DNA of 32,142 nucleotides from a virus, in the IMG/VR virus record IMGVR_UViG_3300036772_000289, positions 1 through 32,142 of that record; one strand, written 5' to 3'. Shown piece by piece: positions 4,275 through 24,420 of this stretch; within the stretch, counting starts at the first letter, position 1, and every line of letters begins with the position of its first letter. The position numbers and the translations under genes are program-made. The notes beneath the pieces were generated by a model, which did no database searches, was not told the origin of the DNA, and was given only the letters and a program-made list of their open reading frames with translations.

Positions 4275-4304
4275 TTGATTCACCAAAAATGCCTGTGCTA
4301 TGAT
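4275..4304 (+). promoter_or_regulatory. sigma70-type promoter of the rightward island
   Basis: TTGATT (4275-4280), an 18-base spacer and TATGAT (4299-4304). Transcription should start near 4311-4312, exactly at an ATG, so the first gene would be translated from a leaderless or near-leaderless message. This promoter points against the surrounding late operon. Confidence 0.6.
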
Positions 4305-4311
4305 GCGGCAC

Positions 4312-4500
4312 ATGCAAAACAGCTCAACCGACACTCGCCTCAATACAAAGCAAGTTGCCGCGCTATTGAAGGTGACGCCAACGACAGTGGCCAACTGGCG
4401 CAAGCAGAAGATCGGCCCGCGCTGGTATCGGCGAGTGCGGAAGGTCTTCTACTTAAAGGCCGATGTAGAGAACTGGGAATTCAGTAATCCGGGGGATTAG
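4312..4500 (+). CDS. small helix-turn-helix DNA-binding protein (excisionase/MerR-like)
   Basis: A 62-residue protein. LNTKQVAALLKVTPTTVANW (residues 10-29) is a helix-turn-helix of the HTH_17/excisionase type, followed by a basic wing-like stretch (GPRWYRRVRKVFYLKADVENW). ATGs at 4300 and 4303 are in frame but lie inside the predicted -10 element, so 4312 is preferred. It is the first gene of the rightward island and probably regulates it, by analogy with small phage DNA-binding proteins. An Xis- or Cox-like role is possible, but no integrase is in the window. Confidence 0.78.
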   Translation: MQNSSTDTRLNTKQVAALLKVTPTTVANWRKQKIGPRWYRRVRKVFYLKADVENWEFSNPGD

Positions 4501-4534: not shown

Positions 4535-4720
4535 ATGCGCGCAGTGGCCAGAATGATCGCAACCGAGCTCAAGCTGCCTCGGGAACTTATCGAGAAGATC
4601 GACGAGTTTCGGGCCAAGCAGCCCATTAAGCCGACAAGGTCAGCGGCCATCCGATACCTGATCGATCTTGGCCTCGATCACGCCACCACACCTCACCGTA
4701 CCTCACCCAACGTCAAGTGA
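4535..4720 (+). CDS. ribbon-helix-helix (Arc/CopG-like) protein
   Basis: A 61-residue protein. IATELKLPRELIEKIDEFRA (from residue 8) followed by TRSAAIRYLIDLGLDHA matches the beta-strand, helix, helix layout of CopG/Arc/MetJ repressors. The start may be 4535 or the ATG at 4553 (MIATEL). A TTGACA lies at 4507-4512 but no convincing -10 was found. Its last dozen codons (TTPHRTSPNVK) are written by the first NNCAC array, so the gene's tail and the array overlap. RHH proteins such as plasmid omega and ParG bind contiguous short direct repeats, which makes this gene a candidate reader of the arrays. Confidence 0.75.
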   Translation: MRAVARMIATELKLPRELIEKIDEFRAKQPIKPTRSAAIRYLIDLGLDHATTPHRTSPNVK

Positions 4721-4741
4721 CATCACGCCACCTCACAACAC
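4677..4741 (+). repeat. pentanucleotide array A (NNCAC)n, 13 units
   Basis: Thirteen consecutive five-base units in one phase, nine with an exact CAC core (atCAC, gcCAC, caCAC, ctCAC and so on). Imperfect units are cgTAC, ccAAC, gtCAA and gtGAC. It covers the end of the RHH gene and stops just before the AAAGGA ribosome site of the next gene. The two leading bases vary while CAC stays fixed. The period is not a multiple of three, so the pattern is not dictated by protein coding. Confidence 0.85.
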
Positions 4742-4756
4742 GAAAGGATCATCCAA

Positions 4757-5362
4757 ATGCCATTATCAATCGTCACCGCGCACATTCATCTACGAAGTAA
4801 GGCCGCGTATACGCAGTCTCGCAAGTACGAAGAGGCAAAACTTGAAGGAGAGCAACCAGACGATTACGATCGCCGCAATTGGCGCAAGCATCTACACGTC
4901 AAGCAACACCACGATGGCCGTCAGACCGTGTTTATTCCTGGTCGCGCCGTTCACTTTTGTCTGATCGATGCCGCCAAATACTCTATGCGGAAGATTTCCG
5001 CAAACTACACGTGGACAAAGAAGTTTGAGTCCGGCATCGCAATCCCCGATGACCTTGACCTCGGAATTGACCCGGCGAAGGTTGATTTCATTGACATCAA
5101 CGCGCACTCAAACGGCAAGCGCGGATCGGCTTCCAGGGTTACGAGGCGATTGCCGATCATCCCGGCGTGGCAAGCCGATTTTGTTGCGATGATCCTTGAT
5201 CCAATCATAACTGAAGATGTTTTCCATGAAATGCTGGAAATAGGTGGGCTATTCATCGGCTTGGGCCAAAACCGTCCGCAGAACGGCGGCTCTTCTGGGC
5301 GTTTTGAGATTGTCGCCATCGATTGGAATGCTGCCCTACAGCCCGTCAGGAAGGCGGCGTAA
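4757..5362 (+). CDS. RAMP/Cas7-like candidate protein of the array island
   Basis: A 201-residue protein. Features suggesting the RAMP (Cas5/6/7) superfamily are an opening strand SIVTAHIHLRSKAAY; a VFIPGRAVHFCLIDAAKY block (58-75), comparable to the IPGSSLKGALR motif of Cas7-type proteins; and a late glycine-rich segment, GLFIGLGQNRP then NGGSSGRFEI (164-185), comparable to the terminal G-rich loop. Between them lie a conserved-looking INAHSNGKRG loop (114-123) and ILDPIITEDVFHEMLEIGG. I recall similar proteins of unknown function in other phages, but this is memory, not a search. No nuclease residues stand out, so nucleic-acid binding is more likely than catalysis. The gene lies between arrays A and B with an AAAGGA ribosome site. 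Confidence 0.72.
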   Translation: MPLSIVTAHIHLRSKAAYTQSRKYEEAKLEGEQPDDYDRRNWRKHLHVKQHHDGRQTVFIPGRAVHFCLIDAAKYSMRKISANYTWTKKFESGIAIPDDLDLGIDPAKVDFIDINAHSNGKRGSASRVTRRLPIIPAWQADFVAMILDPIITEDVFHEMLEIGGLFIGLGQNRPQNGGSSGRFEIVAIDWNAALQPVRKAA

Positions 5363-5375
5363 GCCCCACTACTTC

Positions 5376-5465
5376 GACGCAACACAACACGTCACGATAC
5401 CCTAACTCACGACACCAGACAACACCCCACGCCAATATACGACACCGCACTTCACGCCACGACAC
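5376..5465 (+). repeat. pentanucleotide array B (NNCAC)n, 18 units
   Basis: Eighteen five-base units in unbroken phase between the RAMP-like and winged-helix-like genes. Twelve have an exact CAC core. The rest differ by one or two bases in the core (gaCGC, gaTAC, ccTAA, caGAC, gcCAA, taTAC). The run gacgcaacacaacac at 5376-5390 is identical to 6031-6045 in array C. The array ends just before the AAAGGA ribosome site of the following gene, so it would form most of that gene's upstream untranslated RNA. Confidence 0.9.
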
Positions 5466-5488
5466 ATCCCCCGAGAAAGGAACCGGCG

Positions 5489-5998
5489 ATGCGTACCACC
5501 ATCAATTCCGCCGCAATCAGGGACACGACCCGCGCGATTGCCGACCTGTTTCACGCCGCCTCAGTGGATGAAGTTGTTTCACACGATCAGATCAAAGCCC
5601 TGATCCCAGCTGGTCTACAACATATCAGCCACTACATTTTCGCCCACAGGGCCTTTAAACTTCTTAACAAAGAACACGGACTCGTGTTCGCCACGGTGCC
5701 CCGCGAGGGATATCGTCGTATGCGGCACGTCACTGGCGCTCAGTACACGGTTGATAAAATGCTGAGAAGGACACGGCGGGTTTGTCGGAAGGGCCAAACT
5801 GTGGCGACAAGCGCGATCTCGTTTGCCAACGACGCTACGCCAAGCGAGCGTCGCCAAGTTTATCAGGGCATAAATCTAGGCGGTTTACTAGAGCATCTCG
5901 CGACCTTGAGGACGGCCAAGTCCATGCCAGAAGAACCGCCGCGACCGAAGCCAGACAACTTCTCTTGGCTACGTGAGATGATGGGCGGGCCAAACTAA
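5489..5998 (+). CDS. winged-helix-like protein of the array island, function unknown
   Basis: A 169-residue protein. The N-terminal part is helical (AIADLFHAASVDEVVSHDQI, then SHYIFAHRAFKLLNKEHG), followed by LVFATVPREGYRRM (about 66-79), which resembles the beta-wing and GYR end of winged-helix DNA-binding domains. The middle is strongly basic (KMLRRTRRVCRKGQ, 90-103). The C-terminal third is helical with a polar proline-rich linker. The AAGGA ribosome site lies directly after array B. It is probably a nucleic-acid-binding partner of the RAMP-like protein or the array; the fold call is tentative. Confidence 0.72.
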   Translation: MRTTINSAAIRDTTRAIADLFHAASVDEVVSHDQIKALIPAGLQHISHYIFAHRAFKLLNKEHGLVFATVPREGYRRMRHVTGAQYTVDKMLRRTRRVCRKGQTVATSAISFANDATPSERRQVYQGINLGGLLEHLATLRTAKSMPEEPPRPKPDNFSWLREMMGGPN

Positions 5999-6005
5999 TT
6001 ACCAT

Positions 6006-6155
6006 CACACTACACCGCACCGCACTTCACGACGCAACACAACACTACAACGCACCGCACGGCATGACACTTCACTTCACGACACAACACCGCACGACAC
6101 TTCACATTACCTCACGACACCACAACCCACGACACTTCACTTTACAACACAACAC
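6006..6155 (+). repeat. pentanucleotide array C (NNCAC)n, 30 units
   Basis: Thirty five-base units in perfect phase filling the whole space between two convergent genes. Twenty-four have an exact CAC core; the exceptions (gaCGC, taCAA, ggCAT, atTAC, caCAA, ttTAC) each differ by one base. The leading dinucleotide is far from random: aa, cg, tt and ga account for most units. From 6001 to 6155 the plus strand has only about 14 G residues, so a transcript would be C/A-rich and weakly structured. No terminator hairpin is visible inside it. Confidence 0.93.
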
Positions 6156-23696: not shown

Positions 23697-24420
23697 GCAT
23701 GGCGGCAACGACGCCGCCATGGCCCGCATCGTTGCGGCCGGATCGCGCTTGGCCATTGCCGCCTTGACGCTTGGCGAGAGTACGGCAACGGTCTTTCCAG
23801 GTGAGTGACCAATCAACTCGTTTGACATTCTTTCCGCCTTCGTAACACCAGTAGTTGCGCCATTCCGGCAATAAGTCGTCAGGGTTCAGCCCACGCTCCT
23901 CGGCGTAGGTGCGGTCGCTTTCGTCCGGTTCCCAATCCTCAGGCAGCGTCGTCGCCTTTGGTTTGGGCTTCGCGCGCGCGGAGTCTGCGTCAGCAGACAT
24001 CCTCCTTTCTTCCTTTCTTTCTTCTTTCTTTCCTTCCTTATAGTTTGTATCGGGTGGTGTATCGGTTGTGTATCGGTTGTGTATCGGTTGTGTATCGGGT
24101 CCTGTATCGGCTAGGTGAATCGGTAGCTGATATTTGCTGTAATTACAGATGGTTATGATCGTGCATGCTGTATCGGTTGTGTATCGGATCATCTCCGCCT
24201 TCTGCGCGGCAGCCAACCATCGCTGTATCGCCGGGACGGACCATCGCCAAGCCATTGCCAAGAAGCGAAAAGACGTTCGAATCTGTCCGCGATCCAGCCC
24301 ATTGTGCGGCGCAAACGCTGCATTTTCGATGAGCCACACCCATGCCGCTCTACGGCAATACGGCTCACGCCCAAAGACCGCCTTATCATACCATCCCCGT
24401 TGCATGCGGTAGAAGCTCAC
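23653..24420 (-). CDS. O-like replication initiator (replisome organiser)
   Basis: 255 residues. The N-terminal part (YRMQRGWYDKAVFGREPYCR, then RRAAWVWLIENAAF) with the following RGQIRTSFRFLAMAWRW is the winged-helix start of a common phage initiator family. A repeat-encoded linker (about 100-145) with a lysine/glutamate-rich stretch separates it from a C-terminal domain ending DLLPEWRNYWCYEGGKN and WSLTWKDRCR. It should bind iterons and recruit helicase. GTG start at 24420 with AGGGGGA upstream. The iterons lie in the linker-coding DNA, as in lambda O. Confidence 0.8.
   Translation of the reverse strand: MSFYRMQRGWYDKAVFGREPYCRRAAWVWLIENAAFAPHNGLDRGQIRTSFRFLAMAWRWSVPAIQRWLAAAQKAEMIRYTTDTACTIITICNYSKYQLPIHLADTGPDTQPIHNRYTTDTPPDTNYKEGKKEERKEERRMSADADSARAKPKPKATTLPEDWEPDESDRTYAEERGLNPDDLLPEWRNYWCYEGGKNVKRVDWSLTWKDRCRTLAKRQGGNGQARSGRNDAGHGGVVAAMRELWLEENDGCLPH
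24003..24187. other. replication origin: TGTATCGG iterons plus polypyrimidine tract
   Basis: TGTATCGG occurs at 24046, 24058, 24069, 24080, 24091, 24103, 24169 and 24180, mostly 11-12 bases apart (about one helical turn), with near-copies at 24116 (TGAATCGG) and about 24223. Next to them, 24003-24039 is almost pure T/C on the plus strand (TTTCTTCCTTTCTTTC and so on), an easily melted asymmetric tract. Iterons plus such a tract inside the initiator gene is the lambda ori layout. Confidence 0.78.

What the first reader, a model, noticed from the sequence alone, without database searches (positions are those of the whole stretch)
4677..6155. Three in-phase (NNCAC)n pentanucleotide arrays interleaved with a RAMP-like gene: a candidate new repeat-protein system
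Seen: 13, 18 and 30 five-base units lie before, between and after the last two genes of a four-gene island (4677-4741, 5376-5465, 6006-6155). Nine, twelve and twenty-four units keep an exact CAC core, while the two other bases vary. Phase is never lost within an array. Known: ordinary microsatellites repeat one exact word, and CRISPR repeats are 20-40 bases, so this fits neither. Inference: the arrays are the substrate of the island's own proteins. Either they act as RNA, a low-G strand coated by a RAMP filament (Cas7 proteins bind RNA at a six-base step, so a five-base step would be new), or as DNA with two sites per helical turn, as omega or ParG bind heptads.
Basis: partly seen in the sequence, partly recalled or inferred. 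Interest (0 to 1): 0.95.

Follow-up and report, generated by a model that had tools for sequence, protein, structure and literature searches.

The report
Phage VIPR guide arrays with CAC scaffold
The odd five-base repeats are almost certainly guide RNAs of VIPR, a CRISPR-like phage weapon first described in a 2026 preprint, here built on a CAC backbone instead of the published GGY one, and its close relatives carry guides matching genes of rival mobile elements.

Summary
Three in-phase NNCAC arrays (13, 18 and 30 units; 9, 12 and 24 exact) flank two genes, and shuffles never reproduce them. The 201-aa gene is a RAMP (Cas7/Csm3 fold) homologous to the solved 'SUSP1 Vipr protein'; the 169-aa winged-helix gene is homologous to the gene beside vipr in phage SUSP1. 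The locus is therefore a VIPR system (preprint PMC13142463), in which repeats of three constant bases plus a variable NN form a guide RNA whose NN pairs address DNA, skipping one base per step.

Searching outward, 158 of 164 distinct relatives of the 201-aa protein have same-strand pentamer arrays within 1.5 kb (136-fold enriched over distant DNA). NN is hypervariable and the trimer conserved, but the trimer differs between lineages: CGC, CAC, GGC, GAC, GTC, GTT and others. Under the 1-nt-skip rule, guides of CGC relatives match terminase, serine-recombinase, rival vipr and primase genes, with the skip on the codon wobble.

No target was found for the window's own guides, and RNA was not observed.

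The parts
4677..4741 (+). Array 1: 13 NNCAC units (9 exact), putative vrRNA 1; overlaps the 3' end of the RHH ORF by 44 bases and ends just before the ribosome-binding site of vipr
4757..5362 (+). vipr: 201-aa RAMP (Cas7/Csm3-like) protein
   Evidence: HMM hit to PDB 36pp_D 'SUSP1 Vipr protein' E 5e-7; AlphaFold pLDDT 92.7 and RAMP fold; alignment A1
5267..5269 (+). Codon of Gln171 in the G-loop (GLGQNRPQNGG), candidate reader of the second scaffold base
   Evidence: correlation with the scaffold across the family; hypothesis only
5376..5465 (+). Array 2: 18 NNCAC units (12 exact), putative vrRNA 2
5489..5998 (+). vap: 169-aa winged-helix accessory protein
   Evidence: family-B HMM hits the gene beside vipr in phage SUSP1, 28.5 bits; co-occurs in 48 of 50 records; model pLDDT 90.4 with wHTH fold
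6006..6155 (+). Array 3: 30 NNCAC units (24 exact), putative vrRNA(s); long enough for two guides
4535..4720 (+). Ribbon-helix-helix regulator upstream; possible operon regulator, not conserved with the system
   Evidence: weak RHH_1 match, below the curated cut-off, and PHROG repressor; 1 hit among related loci
4300..4500 (+). Helix-turn-helix (HTH_17, excisionase-like) regulator; neighbour, not conserved with the system

Best explanation
The locus is a phage-encoded VIPR system with a CAC scaffold. The + strand is transcribed through vipr (4757-5362), vap (5489-5998) and the three arrays. Each array yields guide RNA (vrRNA) made of NNCAC units. The Cas7-like Vipr protein polymerises along it, about one subunit per five-base unit, reading the constant CAC and leaving each NN free. 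The NN pairs together base-pair with double-stranded DNA in the gapped pattern NNxNNxNNx (one target base skipped per unit), so a 12-unit guide reads about 24 of 36 target bases, typically with the skipped base on the codon wobble. The complex, helped by the winged-helix Vap, blocks transcription of genes of competing phages and mobile elements. Shown here: the arrays, homology of both proteins, linkage of arrays to the genes, hypervariable NN against a conserved trimer, array polarity, and natural targets by the 1-nt-skip rule for relatives with a CGC scaffold. Inferred from homology to the published system: transcription, filament formation, DNA binding and repression by this particular system; its targets are unknown.
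For: Identity: PDB 36pp_D E 5e-7; SUSP1 vipr 32.8 bits and SUSP1 neighbour gene 28.5 bits; RAMP fold. Linkage: 49 of 64 pattern-found loci carry gene A or B; 158 of 164 distinct Vipr relatives have arrays within 1.5 kb, 0.98 per kb against 0.0072 per kb beyond 3 kb; vap relatives in 48 of 50 records. Positive control: the same detector finds the published GGY-type arrays of SUSP1. Guide character: 135 homologous array pairs with vipr genes 86% identical on average have NN identity 0.33 and scaffold identity 0.87; the last two or three units are biased to AA, the first are not; median 15 units per array. Code: a Paracoccus litorisediminis guide matches 22 of 22 bases in prophage terL of two other Paracoccus genomes, a second guide 18 of 18 in serine recombinases, and the 2-nt-skip control of the first gives 0 hits; the L204 guide matches the vipr G-loop of other elements up to 24 of 24, and L127 a phage primase-helicase 23 of 24. 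The skipped base lies on the codon wobble in these cases.
Against: No target was found for the window's own guides: array 3 gave two hits at chance level, array 1 one viral hit that does not extend and control-level hits in 397 Hyphomicrobiales genomes; array 2 was not searched alone outside the local set. No CAC guide of any system has a convincing target; all validated targets come from CGC guides. The three window arrays share no common 3' tail (read directly) and no Rfam family matches. Arrays 2 and 3 are longer than the 9-16 units reported, and 16 of 61 units deviate from CAC, in the lower part of the range for CAC arrays. No expression data.
Confidence: 0.9

Rival explanations
1. TRAP-like regulation: the RAMP protein binds CAC triplets at a five-base step in its own mRNA and controls translation or termination of the operon; the NN bases are mere spacers.
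For: Arrays sit on the mRNA strand, usually just before a ribosome-binding site, a median 30 bases before the vipr domain start, and the CAC strand is predicted unstructured.
Against: NN bases of relatives match coding sequence of mobile-element genes under a fixed rule; multiple guide modules in tandem, away from gene starts; homology to Vipr, which is RNA-guided (PMC13142463); NN differs far more than the genes between close relatives, which a spacer role would not require.
Confidence: 0.04
2. DNA operator or partition site: an island protein (RHH or wHTH) binds the arrays as DNA, two sites per helical turn.
For: RHH and wHTH DNA-binding proteins are encoded next to the arrays.
Against: RHH is not conserved with arrays; arrays keep one strand relative to vipr and a 3' polarity; the constant trimer changes between lineages while the anatomy stays.
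Confidence: 0.02
3. A decaying VIPR: the window's arrays are relics of a once-active system that no longer makes working guides.
For: Exact CAC in 69, 67 and 80% of units against a median of 84% in CAC arrays; no recognisable tail; no target found.
Against: Both genes are open and well conserved; 60 of 61 units keep two or three scaffold bases; 37% of CAC arrays are at or below 0.80 exact.
Confidence: 0.12
4. Unconstrained low-complexity repeat with no function.
For: Low-G composition of the stretches.
Against: Enrichment beside one gene family 136-fold over distant DNA; conserved trimer with variable NN in phase in many independent phages.
Confidence: 0.01

Closest known systems
VIPR of Escherichia phage SUSP1, type II (preprint PMC13142463; PDB 36pp)
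   Same: RAMP protein with G-loop, adjacent small DNA-binding vap gene homologous by HMM, same-strand tandem pentamer arrays in the intergenic spaces, phage-encoded, five-base step with hypervariable NN
   Different: Constant trimer is CAC instead of GGY; no recognisable 3' tail in the window; two arrays longer than 16 units; Vipr only distantly similar to SUSP1 Vipr
VIPR relatives found here with a CGC scaffold (e.g. Paracoccus litorisediminis L206, viral contigs L127 and L139)
   Same: Same two protein families and anatomy; natural targets found by the 1-nt-skip rule
   Different: Second scaffold base G instead of A; Arg instead of Gln at the G-loop position
CRISPR class 1 backbone subunits (Csm3 of type III-A, Cas7 of type VII)
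   Same: RAMP fold, Foldseek E 2e-7, Z 13
   Different: No CRISPR repeats, no cas neighbours recognised; guide interrupted every five bases; a single small RAMP
TRAP, trp RNA-binding attenuation protein (own knowledge)
   Same: Works on RNA triplets at a five-base step
   Different: Unrelated fold; its spacer bases carry no targeting information

Membership tests
VIPR | Vipr: a single small RAMP homolog with RRM core and G-loop | tested here: met
   PDB 36pp_D 'SUSP1 Vipr protein' E 5e-7; fold matches Csm3/Cas7, Z 13; conserved G-loop in the family
VIPR | Adjacent vipr-accessory (vap) gene | tested here: met
   169-aa family beside the RAMP; its HMM hits the gene after vipr in SUSP1 at 28.5 bits; present in 48 of 50 records
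VIPR | Tandem pentamer repeats, constant trimer plus hypervariable NN, flanking vipr | tested here: met
VIPR | Constant trimer GGY, 'or a related consensus' (wording of the preprint) | tested here: inconclusive
   Window has CAC, not GGY; GGC arrays occur in relatives of the same protein family. Whether CAC counts as a 'related consensus' is in the preprint's fig. S17, not readable here
VIPR | 9-16 repeats per vrRNA | tested here: inconclusive
   13, 18 and 30 units; array 3 may hold two guides; family median 15
VIPR | Invariable 3' tail after the repeats | tested here: inconclusive
   Not recognisable in the window (three 3' flanks differ); constant elements follow the arrays in other CAC loci such as L028, L014, L076
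VIPR | NN code with 1-nt skip on DNA targets | tested here: inconclusive
   Met for CGC relatives; no significant target for the window or any CAC guide
VIPR | vrRNA expression and co-purification with Vipr | not testable with these tools
   needs RNA sequencing and pull-down
VIPR | Found mainly in phages and proviruses | tested here: met
   IMG/VR virus record with terminase, head and recombination genes
CRISPR-Cas class 1 | CRISPR array with repeats of 20-40 bases and spacers | tested here: not met
   Repeats are pentamers; no CRISPR-like array among tandem repeats of the window
CRISPR-Cas class 1 | cas genes beside the RAMP | tested here: not met
   The RAMP, Vap, RHH and HTH proteins give no cas family in Pfam or PADLOC
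TRAP | TRAP fold (11-subunit beta ring) | tested here: not met
   High-confidence model is a RAMP

The most novel reading that the evidence does not exclude
The RNA scaffold read by Vipr is itself switchable. Lineages of one protein family use CAC, CGC, GGC, GAC, GTC, GTT, CTC, CGA or AGT around the same NN code, so mutually orthogonal VIPR systems can coexist in one cell. A single G-loop residue (Gln171 in the window; Gln seen only with the CAC scaffold, Arg in nearly every scaffold whose second base is G) helps choose the second scaffold base, through the familiar Gln-adenine and Arg-guanine contacts.
Probability: 0.35. Interest if true: 0.75.

Novelty: new variant of a known kind. Interest (0 to 1): 0.62.

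Why it matters
VIPR is proposed as the ancestor of CRISPR RAMP systems and as the smallest RNA-guided DNA binder; it was characterised on GGY scaffolds. This locus and its relatives indicate that the constant trimer is lineage-specific and has switched many times (at least 28 changes on an approximate tree) while the NN code is kept. That would give sets of mutually orthogonal guide scaffolds, a handle on how the protein reads RNA, and a simple DNA signature (in-phase trimers five bases apart) for finding VIPR systems in raw sequence without protein models. The natural targets read here (terminase, serine recombinase, rival vipr, primase-helicase) support warfare between mobile elements independently of the preprint's E. 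coli and Pseudomonas data.

Tried and rejected
Microsatellite: rejected, because NN takes many values; the one-word microsatellites among the 115 pattern hits were filtered out, leaving 63 loci besides the window. Coding repeat: rejected, because arrays lie mostly between ORFs. Known RNA family: none in Rfam. A single-protein search of viral contigs with the 201-aa protein gave nothing; the array pattern and alignment profiles were needed. A first iterative HMM was contaminated by ORFs reading through arrays and was redone with starts forced past the arrays. A profile scan with the vap alignment could not be run. Window guide targets: array 3, 9-unit pattern, 2 viral hits, one extending to 10 units but with the skip off the wobble; treated as chance. 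L028 guide: 0 hits. Array 1: 1 viral hit that does not extend; 397 Hyphomicrobiales genomes at control level. L210 CAC guides in 237 Methylococcaceae genomes: one intergenic 9-unit hit against three control hits, then 0 for the second guide. The 3-nt-skip excess in the local test is the arrays themselves. L189 to an IS1595-like transposase, 22 of 26, is below threshold. The Gln/Arg correlation has only two well-supported independent contrasts and is not statistically established. Vap gave no convincing Pfam match.

Full report
Observation. Counting units directly confirms the three arrays exactly as reported: 13 units (9 exact CAC), 18 (12) and 30 (24), with phase unbroken and 60 of 61 units keeping at least two of the three CAC bases. 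No other trimer on either strand forms such an array in the window. Dinucleotide-preserving shuffles never reach the observed counts (0 of 2000 for the array-3 stretch). Array 1 starts inside the last codons of the ribbon-helix-helix ORF.

Arrays predict genes. A search with the 201-aa protein alone found nothing in viral contigs. Searching for the repeat itself (eight exact NNCAC units) gave 115 stretches. After removing one-word microsatellites, 64 loci (window included) had variable-NN arrays, often several per locus, nearly always on one strand and commonly separated by a gene of 500-800 bases. Sub-arrays are often separated by a short constant element (L028 GACAACAGTTTTCC; L014 GCCATTCCTTTTCC; a hairpin-like element in L076). 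With ORF starts forced past the arrays, a first-round search with the window's 201-aa protein hit 44 of the 64 loci, and the 169-aa family covers 40; 49 have at least one.

Genes predict arrays. Profile searches with the 201-aa family, blind to the arrays, fetched more loci from viral contigs and from bacterial and archaeal genomes. Of 164 distinct proteins in the combined set (which includes the array-found loci), 158 have a same-strand five-periodic array within 1.5 kb; the density is 0.98 per kb near the gene and 0.0072 per kb beyond 3 kb. The constant trimer is not always CAC: CGC 58, CAC 42, GGC 29, GAC 6, GTC 3, with one or two cases each of GTT, AGT, CTC and CGA, besides degenerate ones. 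The 169-aa family is found in 48 of 50 virus records tested, one copy each, two of them by weak matches.

Identity. The profile of the 201-aa family hits PDB entry 36pp, 'SUSP1 Vipr protein', at E 5e-7. The preprint on it (PMC13142463) describes VIPR: a RAMP protein, a small accessory gene, and vrRNAs of 9-16 repeats with constant GGY and variable NN, whose NN pairs recognise dsDNA with one skipped base per unit and repress genes of competing phages. In SUSP1 my array detector finds GGY-type arrays on the vipr strand, as published; the 201-aa HMM hits SUSP1 vipr (32.8 bits) and the 169-aa HMM hits the neighbouring gene (28.5 bits). AlphaFold models: 201-aa pLDDT 92.7, closest folds Csm3 and Cas7 of CRISPR types III and VII (Foldseek E 2e-7, Z 13); 169-aa pLDDT 90.4, N-terminal winged helix.

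Guide character. For 135 homologous array pairs whose vipr genes are 86% identical on average, NN positions are 33% identical and the trimers 87%; in L180 and L181, vipr is 99% identical, trimers 100%, NN 33-42%. Arrays have polarity: the last two or three units are biased to AA (about a quarter to two thirds of arrays, by scaffold) while the first units are not; window arrays 1 and 3 end in AACAC. Arrays end a median 30 bases before the vipr domain start. The CAC strand of the window arrays is predicted nearly unstructured, while the other strand folds.

Testing the code. For 546 guides against 3.8 million unmasked bases of related phage and genome DNA, two guides score 19 or more at 1-nt skip and none at 0- or 2-nt skip; shuffled guides reach 20 at most, once in each of two of five sets. 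The L204 guide reads FRPRNNGYYGRF, the G-loop of vipr genes in other elements (up to 24 of 24 bases), and L127 reads a phage primase-helicase gene (23 of 24; its margin over the shuffles is small). A guide of the Paracoccus litorisediminis element, searched in 125 genomes of its genus, matches a prophage terminase gene in two other genomes over 11 consecutive units, 22 of 22 bases, two units beyond the pattern used. By my arithmetic about 10^9 positions over 4^22 gives an expectation near 6e-5. A second guide of the same element matches the YTRKSSE[ED]GLEQ start of serine recombinases in two genomes, 18 of 18 plus further units. The 2-nt-skip version of the first guide has no hit. In these matches the skipped base falls on the codon wobble, as the preprint reports. 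All these guides have CGC scaffolds.

What is not shown. No significant target was found for the window arrays or any CAC guide. The window arrays lack a recognisable common tail, and two are longer than usual. Expression, binding and repression cannot be tested here.

Scaffold reading. Across 159 family members the residue after GxG in the G-loop is Arg in 59 of 59 CGC and 29 of 30 GGC systems, but Gln in 20, Arg in 15 and Ala in 3 CAC systems. Gln never occurs with a scaffold whose second base is G. The CAC members with Arg listed carry a different loop (GGFYGRF or similar). Only two contrasts on well-supported branches exist, so this is a hypothesis. On an approximate tree the scaffold needs at least 28 changes and is more clustered than shuffled labels.

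Verdict. The system is a VIPR with a CAC scaffold; what is added is the scaffold diversity and the natural targets, subject to what fig. S17 of the preprint already lists.

Noticed in passing
L117:3403-4402 (OQ594955, Pseudomonas phage LESphi2): P. aeruginosa LESB58 prophage 2 carries a Vipr relative (P21_9) with three GGC/NN arrays just upstream: a VIPR system in a well-studied clinical prophage.
   Followed up: partly
L206 (Paracoccus litorisediminis) guides; targets in L228, L229, L430, L431: Two guides of one element match prophage terminase and serine recombinase genes in other Paracoccus genomes under the 1-nt-skip rule.
   Followed up: yes
L393, minus strand near 5498 (record of L019): A CGC guide of L189 matches an IS1595-like transposase (ETDGGYFGGYIKP) at 22 of 26 bases; below threshold but in frame with the wobble.
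   Followed up: partly
L032, L054, L087, L104, L115: Tandem guide modules separated by a constant GACAACCGCTTTTCC element, with near-duplicate guides differing in a few NN, as if tracking target variants.
   Followed up: no
L123:2282-2623 and L316-L318: Other five-periodic runs (CRG/CYG trimers) lie about 1.5 kb upstream of the vipr arrays on the same contigs; not the VIPR scaffold, perhaps a coding repeat.
   Followed up: no
L153, L174, L202, L209, L251, L291: Six Vipr relatives have no detectable same-strand pentamer array within 1.5 kb; L209 is cut at the gene, the others may use a scaffold my detector misses.
   Followed up: no
window 24046-24110: About three copies of a 22-base tandem repeat (TGTATCGGGTCGTGTATCGGTTG, Tandem Repeats Finder).
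   Followed up: no
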